Assembly: GCF_001998885.1 (NCBI RefSeq)
Contig: NZ_CP019609.1
Span: forward strand, 434,001-498,000
Reading direction: 5' to 3'
Length of the DNA stretch: 64,000 bases
DNA from: Vagococcus penaei
GTDB taxonomy: Bacteria; Bacillota; Bacilli; Lactobacillales; Vagococcaceae
Shown: in pieces, positions 24,480 through 32,528 of the stretch
Layout of the letters: every line of letters starts with the position of its first letter
Position numbering within the stretch: the stretch's first letter is position 1
Made by a program: the position numbers and the translations under genes
The notes under the pieces: generated by a model
Seen by the model: the letters and a program-made list of their open reading frames with translations, nothing else
What the model was told of the DNA's origin: nothing
The model's database searches: none

Positions 24480-25049
24480 ATGATTCGACAAGCTCAACCA
24501 AAAGATGTCACAGATGTGATTAACTTAGTTATGATTATTTTAAAAGATATGGAATTGGCTGTTTTTGATAAGCTATCTGATGAAGAAGTTCTAAACTTAC
24601 TCGAAGAAGCCTATACTAAATATCCAACTTATCGTTACGGGTACCAAACAATGATCGTTAAAGAAATTGATGGTCAAGTTGCTGGAATTGCTGTGGGTTA
24701 TCCAGATAAACGCGAAAAAACAATTGATGCTGATTTTATCACCTTACTAAATGAACATGGTTTATCCGATGATTATCGTTTCTTTACTGAAATAGAAGCA
24801 TTTCCAAACGAATGGTACCTCGATACTTTGGTAACGTCACCTGATTTTCGTCGTCAAGGAGTAGCAAACTCATTATTAGATGCTTTACCCGAAATTGCAC
24901 GTCAACAAGGATGTGATAAGATTGGTTTAAATTGTGATCAAATCAATCAACAAGCACAACAAGTTTATTTAAAAAAAGGCTTTAAAAAAATGGGCGAAAC
25001 AACCCTATCAAACCATCGCTATGACCATTTACAATGGCTTATAAACTAA
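24480..25049 (+). CDS. GNAT family N-acetyltransferase
   Basis: The 189-residue GNAT protein has the acetyl-CoA loop LVTSPDFRRQGVANSLLDALPE near residue 117 and the C-terminal QVYLKKGFKKMGE strand. The acceptor is unknown. AGGAGG lies seven bases before the start. The stop codon coincides with the first base of the IS1182-family element, so its native terminator has been replaced by the element's hairpin. Confidence 0.87.
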   Translation: MIRQAQPKDVTDVINLVMIILKDMELAVFDKLSDEEVLNLLEEAYTKYPTYRYGYQTMIVKEIDGQVAGIAVGYPDKREKTIDADFITLLNEHGLSDDYRFFTEIEAFPNEWYLDTLVTSPDFRRQGVANSLLDALPEIARQQGCDKIGLNCDQINQQAQQVYLKKGFKKMGETTLSNHRYDHLQWLIN

Positions 25050-25083
25050 AAAAGAGGCTGTGACATAAGTCTCTGAATAAAAC

Positions 25084-25134
25084 AAAAAAGCGATCAAATT
25101 TATGAGTAAAATTCATTTATTTGATCGCTTTTTT
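25084..25134. terminator. Insulating terminator at the left end of the IS1182-family element
   Basis: A perfect 16-bp stem (25084-25099 with 25119-25134) bounded by A and T runs. It would stop transcription entering from the GNAT gene. Confidence 0.85.
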
Positions 25135-25147
25135 TAGTTAAAATAAA

Positions 25148-25173
25148 AACGTACAGGTGACACCCTGTACGTT
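25148..25173 (+). other. Leader hairpin of the transposase gene
   Basis: A perfect 10-bp stem (AACGTACAGG with CCTGTACGTT) and six-base loop lie 30 bases before the transposase start. It probably folds in read-through RNA and limits translation. Confidence 0.6.
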
Positions 25174-25202
25174 AAGTCATTCTCCCGAAAGGAAAACTAA
25201 AA

Positions 25203-26897
25203 ATGTATACAAATTATAACATGAATCAACTTACTTTAGATATAACAACTTCTTATGTTCCTAAAAAAGATAACACCGCATGGTTTATTAATGAACTAGT
25301 TGAGTCACTGGAGCTTAGCGAACCATATCTATTTGGAAGACCTAGAAAATATGATTTAAAAGTAGTTCTTAAATTAACTTTATTTGCCTATACTAGAAGT
25401 GTTTTTACTAGTCGTAAAATTGAACAACTAGCAGAAGAAAGCCTACCGGCTCGTTGGTTAACTCAAGAACAAGTTCCGAGTTATCGGACAATTGCCCGTT
25501 TCAGAACATCTAACGATATTGATAAATTATTACAAAGAAGTTTAGACTCCTTAGTTACTTATTTACGTGAACAACAACTTATTAATGATGCTATTTTTAT
25601 TGATGGAACTAAACTATTAGCTGATGCCAATAAATATAGCTTTGTTTGGAAGAAAAGTACTATTAAGTTTGATCAAATGAATCGACAACAAATCATCAAC
25701 CTATCAGCTGAATTAAAAGAAGCATATGAGACAAGTTCTATACCAGAGGGATCACATTTAACTTTGGATATGGTAGATGAAATATTAACCCAATTAGAAC
25801 TTAGATTAGATGATTTAGAAGAAAAAGTTATCAAAACAGCTAAACTTTCACCTAACCCGTTTAAGGTAAAACGACGTACCTTAAAAAGTAAAAAAAGAAA
25901 GTTGAAAATTCGACGTGATAAAATGAATGAGCATCAGGATAAATTAGCTATTTGTGGTAATAGAAATAGTTATTCAAAAACCGATCATGACGCCACTTTT
26001 ATGAAAGTTAAAGAAGATCCGATGCAAAACGGTCAGTTAAAACCAGCATATAACTTACAAATAGCCACTAGTAATCAATACATTATTGGATATGATATCT
26101 TTCAAAATCCTACAGATACTAAGACACTTCAACCATTCTTAGAAAAGTTAAAAATAGAAAATAGAGTCCCTAAATACATTGTTGCAGATGCTGGATACGG
26201 ATCAGAATCAAACTATCGCTACCTAGAAGACAACTTTTCAGAACACATTGCAGTTATCCCTTATGGGACAATGCTTAAAGAAAAAAGTAAGAAATGGAAA
26301 ACGGATGAAAGAAAAGTCATGAATTGGAGCTATAATGATAAGGAAGATTATTACGTAGACCCGAAGGGAGTCCATTTTAACTTTATTGGGTATCGAAAAA
26401 GAACAGATAAAGATGGGTTTACTCGTGATTTTAAAGAATATCAAGCAGAAAGATATGATGAAAATAAAGATGTCATTCCTGAATCACTTACTCCAAAAGG
26501 CCACACTCGAAAAATAATGGTCAATCCTTCTTGGGAGTATCATAAAACTAAACAAAATGACCAACTTTCAAATGAAATAATCGCTAAGGTCTACAGCCAA
26601 AGAAAAATTGACGTTGAGCCAGTTTTTGGATGGATGAAGGCTTGTTTAGGCTTCAATCGATTTCATATTCGTGGGATCAACAACGTCAAAAAAGAATCAG
26701 GAATACTCGTATTAGCCTTAAATATAATGAAATTGGCTGTAAATCAGAAAAATAAGCCAATAGATAACATAAAAAAATCGGAATCCAAAAATCTTTTTAA
26801 GATTTTCGAATTTCGATTCTTTTATTTAAGAACTGTAACTACTTATGTCACAGCCTCTTTTTATTTTATGCAAGCTTACCAAAACATACCTACATAA
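25203..26897 (+). CDS. IS1182-family transposase
   Basis: The 564-residue DDE transposase begins MYTNYNMNQLTLDITTSYVP. The catalytic residues are likely in IFIDGTKLLAD, VADAGYGSES and VEPVFGWMK. The gene looks intact. Its frame runs through the right terminal repeat and stops about 35 bases outside the element, so the last eleven residues are coded by flanking DNA. GAAAGGA precedes the start. Confidence 0.88.
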   Translation: MYTNYNMNQLTLDITTSYVPKKDNTAWFINELVESLELSEPYLFGRPRKYDLKVVLKLTLFAYTRSVFTSRKIEQLAEESLPARWLTQEQVPSYRTIARFRTSNDIDKLLQRSLDSLVTYLREQQLINDAIFIDGTKLLADANKYSFVWKKSTIKFDQMNRQQIINLSAELKEAYETSSIPEGSHLTLDMVDEILTQLELRLDDLEEKVIKTAKLSPNPFKVKRRTLKSKKRKLKIRRDKMNEHQDKLAICGNRNSYSKTDHDATFMKVKEDPMQNGQLKPAYNLQIATSNQYIIGYDIFQNPTDTKTLQPFLEKLKIENRVPKYIVADAGYGSESNYRYLEDNFSEHIAVIPYGTMLKEKSKKWKTDERKVMNWSYNDKEDYYVDPKGVHFNFIGYRKRTDKDGFTRDFKEYQAERYDENKDVIPESLTPKGHTRKIMVNPSWEYHKTKQNDQLSNEIIAKVYSQRKIDVEPVFGWMKACLGFNRFHIRGINNVKKESGILVLALNIMKLAVNQKNKPIDNIKKSESKNLFKIFEFRFFYLRTVTTYVTASFYFMQAYQNIPT

Positions 26898-27143: not shown

Positions 27144-28373
27144 CTATAGGGTAGTAATAAAATTGTCTAAGCGGTTCATACATATCGAATCTTCTTGTTC
27201 TAAACTCTGTACGACTTCACGGTTAGTTGCTTGTGATAAAACATACGCTCCGCAAGCATCAAACCAATTTGATTGACCATTAAAACCTTGTTTAACGAGC
27301 TGTCTTGCATGAGTTAAGCGTTCATCAGTAAAAATAATATAACCGGTATAAACCTCTTCATTTTTCCTTAAGGCAATAGCAATTTGATGTTCTAGCCCGT
27401 AATCATTAATCCATTTAGATACCACATAATCCATCGCATTTAATAATTCAAGCGGTTGACTGCTAGATAGAGAAAGAGCAGACTGATTCCAAATCAGTGA
27501 CCGAATAGTTACCGTTGGAAAGAGTGTTAACGTCATTAATTCGGCATTTTTAGCTGACTCGATTGGAAACAATTGATTAGCACCTTCTAAATAACTATGC
27601 TTCTCTATTAAATTCGAATCGGCTACTTCATCAAAACCAATCATGTAACTTGAAAAAACATCCACTAGTTGGATCATGCGACTTAATTTTTCACGTCGAG
27701 TAATCACACTGTGCTCTTCAGATAGAAAAATGGCTTGTTGTTTTTGATAGCTGACTGGCGCAAAACGGAAAAACCAACTATCACCTAGTAAATTTAAACG
27801 AATAAAACGCAATGCATGTTCAACTATCGGATAACGTTGAGTAGAGTATCCTTCATTTGTCATACATACTGAACATTTTGGATAGTCAGCATTCGTAATA
27901 GTGACTTTAGCTGGTAAGTCAGTTGATAAAGTCTTCAAATTTAAAGGATAAGGTGCTGTTAACTCGTCCGTTCGGCTAACGGATGGGACTTCAACTTGAT
28001 GATTTTGCAAGCAAATTGTATAAAAATAATCAAGTGCCACTTGTGGCTCGTCATTGTAATGTTGAGAAAACATAGCATTAACAACTGATGGTGGTGGTGT
28101 CAGAAAATCCATTAGTTGTGCAACAAATTGACTTTGTTCATTCGTTGCTGCCTCAATAGGTAATACGCCATTCTCTTTCGCAATAATGATAAATTGTTCC
28201 ACTAATTCCATTGCAACAGGTGGGATTTCTTTTGTGACTTGCGTTGCATCGAAAGTTGATTCATTTATTAAATCCATCAATCGATTTTGAAGATAAATAC
28301 GGTCCATCTCCATCCAACCACCGGATTGAATGGCCAATGTCACAAAATTTTCAATAACTTGATGTTTATTCAT
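27144..28373 (-). CDS. GalT-like protein (class II galactose-1-phosphate uridylyltransferase family, apparently inactive)
   Basis: Family membership is shown by the N-terminal helices, the YPKCSVCMTNEGY cysteine block and the following RFIRLNLLGDSWFFRFAPVSY region, which match class II GalT. Where active enzymes have the HDHFQGG nucleophile block, this protein has KHSYLEGAN before FPIESA, so the nucleophilic His appears to be Tyr. The protein is about 409 residues, some 80 shorter than usual, missing the C-terminal end. The GTG at 28385 is an alternative start. It follows galE by 24 bases. It may be decaying or have a new role. Confidence 0.75.
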   Translation of the reverse strand: MNKHQVIENFVTLAIQSGGWMEMDRIYLQNRLMDLINESTFDATQVTKEIPPVAMELVEQFIIIAKENGVLPIEAATNEQSQFVAQLMDFLTPPPSVVNAMFSQHYNDEPQVALDYFYTICLQNHQVEVPSVSRTDELTAPYPLNLKTLSTDLPAKVTITNADYPKCSVCMTNEGYSTQRYPIVEHALRFIRLNLLGDSWFFRFAPVSYQKQQAIFLSEEHSVITRREKLSRMIQLVDVFSSYMIGFDEVADSNLIEKHSYLEGANQLFPIESAKNAELMTLTLFPTVTIRSLIWNQSALSLSSSQPLELLNAMDYVVSKWINDYGLEHQIAIALRKNEEVYTGYIIFTDERLTHARQLVKQGFNGQSNWFDACGAYVLSQATNREVVQSLEQEDSICMNRLDNFITTL

Positions 28374-28397
28374 TTTACCTGACACATCCTTTTCTAT

Positions 28398-29387
28398 TTA
28401 TTTTGAATACCCATTAGGATGACTTGAATGCCATGCCCAAGCAGTCTTAAAAATATCAGTTAAGTTTGTATAAGTTGGTTTCCATCCAAGCACGCGACAC
28501 GCTTTTTCAGGTGTTGCCACTAAACTAGCTGGGTCACCAGCACGTCTTGGCCCGATAATTGATGGTATGTCACATTGCGTTAATTTTCGAGCTTCATCGA
28601 CCATTTCCTTTACAGAAAAACCATTGGCACTCCCTAAATTAAAGACGTCACTTGGATTACCTTCTTCTAAATAATCTAGCGCCAAGACATGAGCCTCGCT
28701 CAAATCGACGACATGAACATAATCACGAATACATGTACCATCTGGTGTTGGATAATCATCACCAAAAATCGTGATTTCAGTTCGTTGACCTAGAGCTGTT
28801 TGTAAAATAATTGGCACTAAATGTGTCTCTGGTAAATGGTCCTCACCAATTGAGCCGTCTAAGCTAGCACCTGCAACATTAAAATAGCGCAAAGCCACAT
28901 ATTTAATACCATATGCTTCATCACACCAGTGCATCATTTTCTCCATCATTAACTTACTTTCACCATATGGATTTTTAGGATTGGTTTGTGCCGTCTCATC
29001 AATCGGCACACGCTTGGGTTCACCATAAGTTGCTGCTGTCGAAGAAAAAACAATATGCTTAATCGCAAGCTCTTGCATTACTTCTAGCACAATTTGTGTC
29101 CCATGGACGTTATTATTAAAGTAGGTTAATGGTTTTCCAACAGATTCACCTACTAAAGAACTGGCTGCAAAGTGTACCACCCCACTAATGTTTTCCTCAC
29201 GAAAAACATCTAGTAAAAACGATTTATTACGGATATCTCCCTCATAAAACCGAACCGTATCATCTATAGCTTCACGGTGACCTGTCAGAAGGTTATCAAT
29301 CACAATAACGTCTCTTCCCGATTTTTTCAGTGCTTGAACAGCATGTGAACCGATATACCCTGCACCACCTAATACTGCAATTGTCAT
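28398..29387 (-). CDS. galE: UDP-glucose 4-epimerase
   Basis: GalE interconverts UDP-glucose and UDP-galactose. The 329-residue short-chain dehydrogenase-type protein has GGAGYIGSHAVQAL at the N-terminus, the HFAASSLVGESV block, the catalytic YGESK and the substrate loop GSIGEDHLPETHL. It is followed by the GalT-like gene; no galK is present in the window. Confidence 0.95.
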   Translation of the reverse strand: MTIAVLGGAGYIGSHAVQALKKSGRDVIVIDNLLTGHREAIDDTVRFYEGDIRNKSFLLDVFREENISGVVHFAASSLVGESVGKPLTYFNNNVHGTQIVLEVMQELAIKHIVFSSTAATYGEPKRVPIDETAQTNPKNPYGESKLMMEKMMHWCDEAYGIKYVALRYFNVAGASLDGSIGEDHLPETHLVPIILQTALGQRTEITIFGDDYPTPDGTCIRDYVHVVDLSEAHVLALDYLEEGNPSDVFNLGSANGFSVKEMVDEARKLTQCDIPSIIGPRRAGDPASLVATPEKACRVLGWKPTYTNLTDIFKTAWAWHSSHPNGYSK

Positions 29388-29505: not shown

Positions 29506-29677
29506 TTAAGCAGCGAAAGCCGATTGGCTTTTGTTGCTTATTTGTTTGTCTTTAAAACTGAGCAGTACTCTATATTTATAGTTTTGAAAGTTTCTGTATC
29601 CATACGCTATTCGCTTAATTAACTTGATTTTATTAATAGATCCTTCTAGCGGTCCATTAGAAAAAGTGGATAGGCTA
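29506..29677 (-). pseudogene. ISL3 transposase, C-terminal fragment
   Basis: The minus-strand frame encodes LSTFSNGPLEGSINKIKLIKR and YGYRNFQNYKYRVLLSF, the conserved C-terminus of ISL3 transposases. It is cut at the left border of the IS3-family element. Confidence 0.85.
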
Positions 29678-29740
29678 CACTTGACTAGACAGAAAAAATA
29701 AGGTGTGATGAGAATAAGAAAACACACTGGAGGAAATGTC

Positions 29741-30034
<294 letters not shown>

Positions 30035-30069
30035 TTAAAGCCAACAAACATAAATATTCTATATCAGCG

Positions 30070-30906
30070 ATGTGCCGAGTCCTTAAAATATCAAGACAAA
30101 CTTACTATTATCAGGAAAAGAAGCCATTACTAGAAAGTGAACTAGAAGAAATTGTGGAAATGATTTTTCGCCAAAATAAAAAAGCTTATGGCGCTCGTAA
30201 AATAAAAAAAGCACTTAGTTTAGAAGGCATCATTCTCAGTAGAAGAAAAATTAGAAGGATTATGCGACACAGAAACCTCGTTTCTGTGTATACGAAAGCT
30301 TATTTTAAGGTGGTATCTTCTAATGTGAATGAGTCTAAAATAACCAATCAATTAAAACGTCATTTTAACTCCGTTATGCCATTAGAAAAAGTTGTCGCCG
30401 ATTTAACTTATGTCAAGGTTGGCAATCGTTGGCACTATGTCTGTTTAATTCTTGATTTATTTAATCGAGAAATCATTGGATTTAGTTGTGGGGCATCAAA
30501 AGATGCCGAATTAGTTAAACAGGCATTTTATACGATTCCGTACGCCTTAACAAACATTCAGTTGTTTCATACTGATAGAGGAAAAGAATTTGATAACCAA
30601 GTGATTGATACCATACTAAATACATTTAATATCAAGCGATCGTTGAGTAGAAAAGGAAATCCCTGGGATAATGCCGTCGCCGAGTCAACTTATAAATCCT
30701 TTAAAGCAGAGTTCGTTTATCCCAATCAGTTTGAGACACTAAAAGAATTATCTGTGGCTCTTTATGACTATGTTCATTGGTGGAATCATTTCAGAATACA
30801 CGGAGCATTGAATTATGTCACTCCGCTTAGTATCAGAGCTCAGAGATTAGCGATAGCTTCCCTTGAGGATGAGTCAAACTGTGATACGTGTGAGATAGCG
30901 GGTTGA
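30070..30906 (+). CDS. IS3-family transposase OrfB (integrase catalytic part)
   Basis: This is the DDE catalytic subunit with an HTH_21 N-terminus (AYGARKIKKALSLEGI) and an rve domain: VVADLTYVKVG (first Asp), LFHTDRGKEFDN (second Asp) and GNPWDNAVAESTYKSFKAE (Glu). The frame is open well upstream of the ATG and overlaps orfA in -1 phase, so the main product is probably the frameshifted OrfAB. All catalytic residues are present. Confidence 0.92.
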   Translation: MCRVLKISRQTYYYQEKKPLLESELEEIVEMIFRQNKKAYGARKIKKALSLEGIILSRRKIRRIMRHRNLVSVYTKAYFKVVSSNVNESKITNQLKRHFNSVMPLEKVVADLTYVKVGNRWHYVCLILDLFNREIIGFSCGASKDAELVKQAFYTIPYALTNIQLFHTDRGKEFDNQVIDTILNTFNIKRSLSRKGNPWDNAVAESTYKSFKAEFVYPNQFETLKELSVALYDYVHWWNHFRIHGALNYVTPLSIRAQRLAIASLEDESNCDTCEIAG

Positions 30907-31021
30907 TTTTTATAAGTCAACACACCGCGAAAGAGTCACAGTTTGAGAGGCTCATGGTCAAGGGTAATCGGATAACAGTACCAATGTTTTGACACCTTAT
31001 AATATTTGTCAAAAAAAGTGT

Positions 31022-31228
31022 TGCCATTCCAAAACCATTTTTTACAATGGAATAGTCTTCATTTTTAATCCCGCAACAAGGACAAGCCAAAGGCTTATAC
31101 GTAAGTGTTCCTTTAAAGATTTTGGATTTAACTCCTTTAATGACATTTTCTTCGCAAAAAATAGAATCAAAATAAATATTTGTATCTTTCAAATCAAGTG
31201 ATATTCGTATACAATTGTTGTGAGACAT
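31022..31228 (-). pseudogene. ISL3 transposase, N-terminal fragment
   Basis: MSHNNCIRISLDLKDTNIYF followed by the zinc-ribbon region PLACPCCGIKN is the start of an ISL3 transposase. AGGAAG precedes the ATG. After KNGFGMAT the sequence enters the IS3 element. The central 300 or so residues are missing altogether. Confidence 0.83.
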
Positions 31229-31778: not shown

Positions 31779-32495
31779 TCAAATAATACGATTAAATTTT
31801 TTTGCTGCAGCTTCATCCACAATAATCGTCACATTAGGATGTAATTGTAAGACACTTGCAGGAACATCTTCTGTCACCGGACCTTTAACCGTTTGGTAGA
31901 TGGCGTCCGCTTTTTTATCACCAAATGCTAACAAAATAATTTTTTTCGCTTGCATAATTGATTTGATTCCCATAGAAATGGCTTGTGTCGGTACATCGTC
32001 AATTGACTCAAAATTTCGGCTATTGGCTTTGATTGTCGATTCTGTTAAAGCAACGTCACGTGTCACACTTCCAAATGGTGAACCTGGCTCATTAAAACCA
32101 ATATGACCATTCTCACCTATCCCCAAAATCTGAATATCAACTGGATGAGCAGCAAGAATTTCTTCATAGCGTTGACACTCAGCAGCAATATCTGTTGCTT
32201 GACCATTTGGTAAATAATTAACTTTAAATGGTTTGGCTTTAAATAAATGTTCCATCATAAAATAATGATAACTTTGTGGATCTGTTGGTGCTAAGCCAAT
32301 ATACTCATCTAAATTCACAGAGTTCATTGTACTAAAATCTAAATTACTTGCCACAAGCTCTTGATAAAGTGGTAATGGCGTACTACCAGTTGCTAGTCCT
32401 AATGTCTGAATATGATGATGAGTCATCGCATCAGCAATTATTTGATAAGCTTCTTTGCCACCTTGTGTTTGGTTTTCAACCTTAATAAGTTTCAT
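31779..32495 (-). CDS. nagB: Glucosamine-6-phosphate deaminase
   Basis: NagB converts glucosamine 6-phosphate to fructose 6-phosphate and ammonia, opposing GlmS, which is also in this window. The 238-residue protein shows [15 protein letters not shown] near residue 35, the NLDEYIGL block and [15 protein letters not shown] with the catalytic residues. The frame opens at 32528, but GAGGAGA supports the ATG at 32495 (MKLIKVEN). A NagR-type operator overlaps its start site. Confidence 0.95.
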
Positions 32496-32514
32496 ACGTT
32501 TTCTCCTCGCACTT

Positions 32515-32528
32515 TTGGTATAGTCCAA
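32515..32528. promoter_or_regulatory. NagR-type operator of nagB
   Basis: TTGGTATAGTCCAA is palindromic and agrees with the GntR-family NagR/DasR consensus TGGTATAGACCA at all but one position. It sits at the nagB transcription start. Confidence 0.65.

What the first reader, a model, noticed from the sequence alone, without database searches (positions are those of the whole stretch)
27144..28373. GalT-like protein that seems to have lost its catalytic histidine, kept in operon with galE
The YPKCSVCMTNEGY block and downstream region place it in class II GalT, but the position of the HDHFQGG nucleophile block reads KHSYLEGAN, so the nucleophile His aligns with Tyr. The C-terminal 80 residues are missing. 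The frame is otherwise clean with no stops, which suggests it is maintained. It may be a non-catalytic regulator or an early pseudogene. A second, active galT would be expected elsewhere if the organism uses galactose.
Basis: partly seen in the sequence, partly recalled or inferred. Interest (0 to 1): 0.7.

Follow-up and report, generated by a model that had tools for sequence, protein, structure and literature searches.

The report
Retained, catalytically dead galactose enzyme remnant
A bacterial protein built from the galactose enzyme GalT has lost the parts that do the chemistry, yet related bacteria keep it intact, even some in which no galactose pathway was found, so it probably does another job that has not been named.

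Summary
The 409-aa frame at 27144-28373 (-), directly behind galE, is a class II GalT relative whose nucleophile His is Tyr. An intact galT (HDHFQGG, with galK) lies elsewhere in the same genome. It does not look like an early pseudogene. Short GalT-like proteins occur in 20 of 29 genomes of the family and 13 of 14 of the genus (Vagococcus, inferred from named relatives). Eleven of those 20 have no other GalT match and no galactokinase over cut-off. Of 27 short copies compared, 24 lost the nucleophile and 26 keep the four zinc-ligand positions known from E. coli GalT; the 26 tested all lack the UDP loop and hexose block. dN/dS is 0.11-0.28 in 11 pairs (0.11-0.18 in the five unsaturated ones). 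Conservation is inverted: the N-terminal helical domain is the better kept part in short copies, the catalytic part in full enzymes. Most short genes sit beside the neighbours of the native galK-galE-galT-galR operon, so I read them as remnants of the native galT. A further-reduced 210-aa relative is in 118 of 118 genomes of a genus taken to be Streptococcus. Best reading: a zinc-stabilised pseudoenzyme doing a non-catalytic job through its N-terminal domain. The partner is unknown.

The parts
27144..28373 (-). Short GalT-like protein (409 aa from ATG; GTG at 28385 gives 413 aa)
   Evidence: ORF and translation; class II GalT models; AF2 model pLDDT 86.2, pTM 0.87
27999..28373 (-). N-terminal all-helical domain, residues 1-125, the better conserved part in short copies
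   Evidence: Model secondary structure, six helices to residue 123; pairwise identity by part
27864..27875 (-). CxxC, residues 167-170, first two putative zinc ligands (E. coli GalT Cys52, Cys55)
   Evidence: Alignment columns; E. coli ligands from passages of PMC5081055; correspondence by motif order is inferred
27711..27713 (-). His221, third putative zinc ligand (E. coli His115)
   Evidence: correspondence inferred
27576..27602 (-). KHSYLEGAN, residues 258-266: first His of HxH kept (H259, putative zinc ligand, E. coli His164); nucleophile position is Tyr261 (E. coli His166)
28398..29387 (-). galE, UDP-glucose 4-epimerase, directly upstream
   Evidence: TIGR01179 429 bits, over cut-off 262
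31779..32528 (-). nagB, upstream neighbour that also flanks the native gal operon in two of the 11 native-type loci read
   Evidence: TIGR00502 246.5 bits, over cut-off 236.9; gene order in relatives
29667..31031 (+). IS3-type element between nagB and galE (two transposase frames; 40-nt imperfect inverted repeats, 73%)
25049..26897 (+). Transposase gene (DDE_Tnp_1) downstream of the short gene with 22-nt perfect inverted repeats at 25049-25070/26841-26862; lies where V. vulneris has the CPBP protease gene

Best explanation
The gene is the surviving, catalytically dead form of the lineage's native class II galT. After galK and galR were lost from the native operon (and, in some species, a different full gal operon took over elsewhere), the galT reading frame lost its nucleophile His, its UDP loop and its hexose-binding block. 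It kept the zinc-ligand positions that should hold the HIT-like body together and, best of all, the N-terminal helical domain. I propose that it works without chemistry, as a zinc-stabilised protein whose N-terminal domain binds a partner. Shown here: loss of catalytic parts, retention of zinc positions, purifying selection on the short copies as a group, retention where no Leloir pathway was found. Inferred: descent in place from the native galT. Proposed only: zinc binding and partner binding; the partner is not known.
For: Of 27 short copies the nucleophile column is not His in 24, while all four zinc columns are intact in 26; in 36 full GalTs the nucleophile is His in 36. UDP loop and hexose block: 0 of 26 short, 36 of 36 full. 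dN/dS 0.106-0.282 in 11 pairs. Identity N-domain against catalytic part: short 0.41/0.29, native-type full 0.54/0.70, other full 0.38/0.60. 11 of 29 family genomes hold a short copy but no other class II match, no GalK over cut-off and no class I GalT. All 27 short copies are nearer to native-type than to other full GalTs, and 15 of 15 nearer to the native-type mean than to their own genome's full GalT. 22 of 24 short loci read have at least one neighbour found beside native gal operons: TsaB downstream 16, the 322-133 aa gene pair 4, nagB alone 2. Confident model whose body matches Apa2 (Z 15.8) and E. coli GalT (Z 7.6). A 210-aa derivative in 118 of 118 genomes of another genus keeps the same N-domain.
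Against: Three short copies (G023, G027, G028) still have HxH, and one (G093) has lost the zinc positions as well. Of the 11 dN/dS pairs six have dS above 1.2 and are near or past saturation, three of the other five share genomes, and in all six genome pairs with a full GalT to compare the full gene is lower, so constraint on the short form is weaker than on the enzyme. The window gene's closest relative is only 53% identical (omega 0.23, dS 1.8). Short copies were collected as open frames, so broken ones could be under-counted. IS elements lie on both sides of the window's galE-galT-like pair and promoter matches are no more than chance, so expression here is unproven. One or several origins of the short form cannot be decided. 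Two of 24 short loci (G286, G028) show none of the native neighbours. No partner is identified.
Confidence: 0.66

Rival explanations
1. Slowly decaying pseudogene: the native galT lost its use and is still drifting, open by chance.
For: Loss of active site, variable length (337-443 aa), dN/dS higher than in the full GalT in six of six genome pairs; IS elements on both sides in the window.
Against: The 27 short copies are single open frames, though they were collected as such; dN/dS 0.11-0.18 in the five unsaturated pairs; zinc positions intact in 26 of 27 while the nucleophile is gone in 24. The one GalT found broken into two frames in the 29 family genomes is a full-type gene (G018), not a short one.
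Confidence: 0.13
2. Regulatory subunit of galactose metabolism: a dead GalT that pairs with the active GalT or with GalE, or senses UDP-sugars.
For: Adjacent to galE in the window and some relatives; 9 of 29 family genomes hold both short and full copies.
Against: 11 of 29 genomes have the short copy with no other GalT and no GalK over cut-off; galE is not in the stretch read at many short loci; the UDP loop and hexose block are gone. GalE elsewhere in those genomes was not searched.
Confidence: 0.15
3. A different enzyme: the HIT-like body keeps a changed activity with another nucleophile or as a hydrolase or lyase.
For: Three short copies keep HxH; the body's best structural match is the Ap4A phosphorylase Apa2.
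Against: The nucleophile column is Y, F, S, C, R, V or Q in the other 24; conservation is lower in the catalytic part than in the N-domain.
Confidence: 0.06

Closest known systems
Class II GalT (TIGR01239, galT_2; Pfam PF01087/PF02744)
   Same: Sequence homology over residues 7-323, same N-terminal domain, CxxC...H...H positions, GalT-type body fold
   Different: No nucleophile His, no UDP loop, no hexose block, score 164 of the 650 cut-off, no PF02744 match under E 0.01
NCBIfam NF003637 (PRK05270.3-2, 404 positions, named UDP-glucose--hexose-1-phosphate uridylyltransferase)
   Same: Best matching model (205 bits). Its only match over cut-off among 295 order genomes, G286 (taken to be Enterococcus faecalis, inferred), is itself a short copy without the nucleophile
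   Different: Window protein is far under the 860-bit cut-off. The model's enzyme name is not borne out by the residues of G286
Class I GalT of E. coli (1HXQ) and yeast Ap4A phosphorylase Apa2 (4I5T)
   Same: Body fold: Z 7.6 (rmsd 5.4, 200 aligned) and Z 15.8 (rmsd 3.7, 254 aligned); E. coli zinc ligands C52, C55, H115, H164 and nucleophile H166 as given in PMC5081055
   Different: Neither match reaches the first 100 residues; nucleophile absent. A Z of 7.6 alone would be middling
210-aa GalT-derived protein between hflX and rnz in the genus coded g11 (taken to be Streptococcus)
   Same: Same N-terminal domain and R-x-N-L-x-G strand; profile match probability 99.8 over 185 columns
   Different: No CxxC and no HxH region; less than half the length of GalT; other locus

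Membership tests
Active class II GalT | HxH nucleophile His | tested here: not met
   Tyr261 at the column that is His in 36 of 36 full GalTs
Active class II GalT | UDP loop (GSNADLPIVGGS) and hexose block (ENIGLIEVMG); their functions are assigned from class I by recall | tested here: not met
   Both patterns absent; present in 36 of 36 full GalTs
Active class II GalT | Score over the curated cut-off of TIGR01239 | tested here: not met
   164 of 650 bits; the other galT of the genome scores 705
Active class II GalT | Uridylyltransferase activity | not testable with these tools
   Needs an assay
GalT homologue (family by descent) | Sequence and fold homology | tested here: met
   E 1e-60 to NF003637; fold matches. 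The profile comparison shares sequences on both sides and is not independent
GalT homologue (family by descent) | Zinc-ligand positions of bacterial GalT | tested here: met
   C167, C170, H221, H259 present; metal binding itself not tested, correspondence to E. coli inferred
NF003637 equivalog | Score over 860 bits | tested here: not met
   205.5 bits
Pseudoenzyme | Homologue of an enzyme, catalytic residues lost, maintained by selection | tested here: met
   for the window gene itself selection rests on one distant pair (omega 0.23, dS 1.8)
Pseudogene | Disrupted frame or neutral evolution | tested here: not met
   Open frame; dN/dS well under 1 in 11 of 11 pairs, six of them with dS above 1.2

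The most novel reading that the evidence does not exclude
The native class II GalT of these lactic acid bacteria carries a second, housekeeping function in its N-terminal helical domain, independent of galactose. When the enzyme function was dropped or taken over by a second gal operon, that domain was kept: as short zinc-bearing remnants in Vagococcus, Enterococcus and kin, and as a 210-aa stand-alone protein in all sampled genomes of a genus taken to be Streptococcus. Because remnants lie next to tRNA-modification or tRNA-processing genes (tsaB-rimI-tsaD; miaA-hflX-rnz), that function may concern tRNA maturation or translation.
Probability: 0.3. Interest if true: 0.86.

Novelty: new variant of a known kind. 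Interest (0 to 1): 0.7.

Why it matters
It gives a case in which a textbook enzyme lost its chemistry but not its gene, in several genera, including genomes where no pathway for it to serve was found. It points to a non-catalytic role of the N-terminal domain of class II GalT and to a genus-wide conserved small gene with no domain match over curated cut-offs. It also shows that an annotation model (NF003637) names a copy without the nucleophile as an active transferase, so galactose use may be wrongly predicted from such calls.

Tried and rejected
Chance open frame: rejected by homology and dN/dS. HxH elsewhere in the protein: none seen. Truncation by the downstream IS: the C-terminal FIxTL aligns with the V. 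vulneris copy, so the IS did not cut the frame, although the CPBP gene that follows in V. vulneris is absent from the window. Partner of GalT or needed for galactose use: not general, 11 genomes lack another GalT and GalK. Derived from the genome's own full galT: not supported, 15 of 15 are nearer the native type, by as little as 0.007 in G335. Several independent origins: suggested by one N-domain tree with the 210-aa proteins included (3 changes; the G286 copy among native full GalTs, support 90), but the same tree without them puts the 27 short copies on one side (support 92), and the longer tree of 26 short copies does too (100); left open. Long branches and few columns make these trees weak; the split of native-type and other full GalTs has support 96 and 69.

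Rows dropped: the two pieces of the G018 full galT (frame broken) from tree and counts; G015 (contig edge) and G014 were not fetched for the tree; of the 97 full-only genomes in the Enterococcus-type family five were used; in all 11 native-type and 25 other full GalTs. 'Native type' was assigned from the tree. Two short loci (G027, G342) end at a contig edge, so one side is unseen.

Structure: no solved relative by sequence. The listed PDB matches of the window model start at residue 90 or later; the helical domain was not predicted alone. The 210-aa model had no Foldseek match under E 0.001; its top second-look rows, Apa2 Z 6.9 and DUF4931 Z 6.8, are in the noise range. Promoter and terminator scans gave counts near chance. 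In the plasmid search the ten rows shown fall on the two transposase regions; 731 more were not listed.

In the 118-genome search 17 rows count one TAG inside the match; in the one read (L234) it is the gene's own stop, two codons before the match ends. One genome, G444, gave its match in two pieces (not followed up).

Papers: searches listed no paper on a short GalT-like protein or the 210-aa gene, and searches returned none; lists were capped (for example 20 of 390). I read listings and abstract starts only, plus passages of PMC5081055 and one passage of PMC11183247. The locus tags were guesses from memory.

Full report
What is there. The window frame 27144-28373 (-) codes for 409 residues with no stop and lies 24 bp behind galE (28398-29387, -). 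It matches class II GalT models strongly but far below their cut-offs. In alignment the full enzymes of the genus read SH[DN]H[FY]Q[GA]G and this protein reads KHSYLEGA: the first His is kept and the second, the nucleophile position, is Tyr. An intact galT of the HDHFQGG type, with galK and galE, lies elsewhere in the genome, and no class I GalT was found.

How widespread. In the genus 13 of 14 genomes carry a short copy; G010 has only a full one. In the family (29 genomes) 20 carry a short copy: 9 with and 11 without a second, full GalT; the other 9 have a full-type GalT only, counting G018 (broken frame) and G015 (cut at a contig edge). GalK over cut-off is present in 17 of 29, and in none of the 11 short-only genomes: G002, G004, G006, G007, G008, G011, G021, G023, G025, G027, G028. 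In the Enterococcus-type family 6 of 105 genomes carry a short copy, all six with a full one elsewhere; 2 of 105, both under 80% complete, have no match. A further short copy is in G033 of another family.

What was lost and what was kept. Of 26 short copies none has the UDP loop or the hexose block, and 3 have HxH; all 36 full copies have all three. With G033 added (27 short), the nucleophile column is His in 3, while C, C, H, H at the zinc positions are all present in 26; the exception is G093. Among full enzymes the nucleophile is His in 36 of 36, while 3 of the 25 'other full' ones have lost zinc positions, as human GALT has (passages of PMC5081055). E. coli zinc ligands C52, C55, H115, H164 and nucleophile H166 come from that paper; that they correspond to C167, C170, H221, H259 and Y261 is inferred from motif order and spacing, not from a superposition.

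Selection. dN/dS (Nei-Gojobori) is 0.106-0.282 in 11 pairs of short copies. Five pairs have dS under 0.7 (omega 0.112-0.177), three of them among the same three genomes; six have dS of 1.2-3.2 and are near or past saturation. In the six genome pairs with a full GalT as well, the full gene is lower in each (0.046-0.178 against 0.106-0.282), so constraint on the short form is real but weaker. For the window gene the only usable pair is V. vulneris (omega 0.23, dS 1.8). Identity is higher in the N-domain than in the catalytic part among short copies (0.41 against 0.29) and lower among full ones (0.54 against 0.70 native type; 0.38 against 0.60 others). So the part under strongest constraint has switched.

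Where it came from. In relatives the native operon galK-galE-galT-galR lies beside the t6A genes tsaB-rimI-tsaD (G017, G020, G022, G255, G030; in G294 without galK), 6 of 11 native-type loci with TsaB in the stretch read, two of them also with nagB on the other side (families). Of 24 short loci read (window included) 16 have TsaB downstream on the same strand; four more (G271, G335, G341, G342) have upstream the 322-133 aa gene pair that lies before the native operon in G030, G246, G255 and G349 (homology checked); two (G013 and the window) share only nagB; two (G286, G028) share none. None of the 24 shows GalK or GalR in the stretch read, two of them being cut by a contig edge. In the 15 genomes with both a short and a full copy, the full copy always falls in the other branch of the GalT tree, never among the native type. 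I take the short gene to be the native galT, decayed in place. Whether this happened once or several times is not resolved.

Structure. The window protein folds confidently in prediction (pLDDT 86.2, pTM 0.87): six helices to residue 123, then a GalT-like body. The body matches Apa2 (Z 15.8, rmsd 3.7, 254 residues), a DUF4931 protein (Z 9.3, rmsd 5.2, 181) and E. coli GalT (Z 7.6, rmsd 5.4, 200). The first 90 residues are not covered by the listed matches.

A smaller relative. The genus coded g11 in family f4 (taken to be Streptococcus from its size, genome sizes and gal gene order; no call names it) has a 207-217 aa protein with the same N-domain (TPPPSVxNAYFAE) and the R-x-N-L-x-G strand, without CxxC or HxH. 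It matched in 118 of 118 genomes, in two pieces in one, lies between hflX and rnz in 41 of 41 loci read, with miaA before hflX in 4 of 4 wider loci, and has dN/dS 0.03-0.20 in nine pairs. Five of the six g11 genomes, chosen because they had shown only a weak match, have it and no full GalT match. Profile comparison with the short family gives probability 99.8, E 1e-29 over 185 columns. In 295 genomes of the order no other genus gave a match better than E 4.6e-14, and those were GalT frames matched through the N-domain.

Mechanism. The protein cannot use the known GalT mechanism, which needs the nucleophile His. It need not serve galactose use, since it persists where no other GalT and no GalK was found. 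I propose a non-catalytic protein, its body held by zinc, acting through the N-domain on a partner. The neighbours of the remnants (t6A genes in one group; miaA, hflX, rnz in the other) make tRNA maturation or translation worth testing first, but the t6A neighbourhood is inherited from the native operon and is weak evidence by itself.

Known or new. Pseudoenzymes are a known kind; a GalT-derived one kept after loss of the pathway I did not find in the searches listed. NCBIfam's NF003637 names G286's short copy a transferase (960 bits against a cut-off of 860) although its nucleophile column is Tyr, so names from that model deserve a check.

Noticed in passing
L070:4200-5447 (G286): NCBIfam equivalog NF003637 scores this copy without a nucleophile over its cut-off, so it would be named an active GalT.
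   Followed up: partly
L195-L199, L201, L205-L245, L248-L251: Genus-wide 210-aa GalT-derived protein in the miaA-hflX-(this)-rnz cluster; no match over curated cut-offs in the three scanned against Pfam and NCBIfam.
   Followed up: yes
window 25049-26897 and 29667-31031: Two IS elements bracket galE and the short gene; the downstream one occupies the place of the CPBP protease gene of V. vulneris.
   Followed up: partly
L078:4059-5536 (G018): A full-type galT between galK and galR is broken into two frames (a real break or a sequencing error).
   Followed up: no
L083, L084, L085: In the 337-350 aa lineage the short gene overlaps a CPBP intramembrane protease gene by 4 bp, suggesting translational coupling.
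   Followed up: no
L178, L179 (G024, G026) and L158 (G093): Full GalTs that keep the nucleophile but lack the CxxC zinc motif, the opposite of the short copies.
   Followed up: partly
L247:2973-5447 (G048): galE and galT fused in one 824-aa frame.
   Followed up: no
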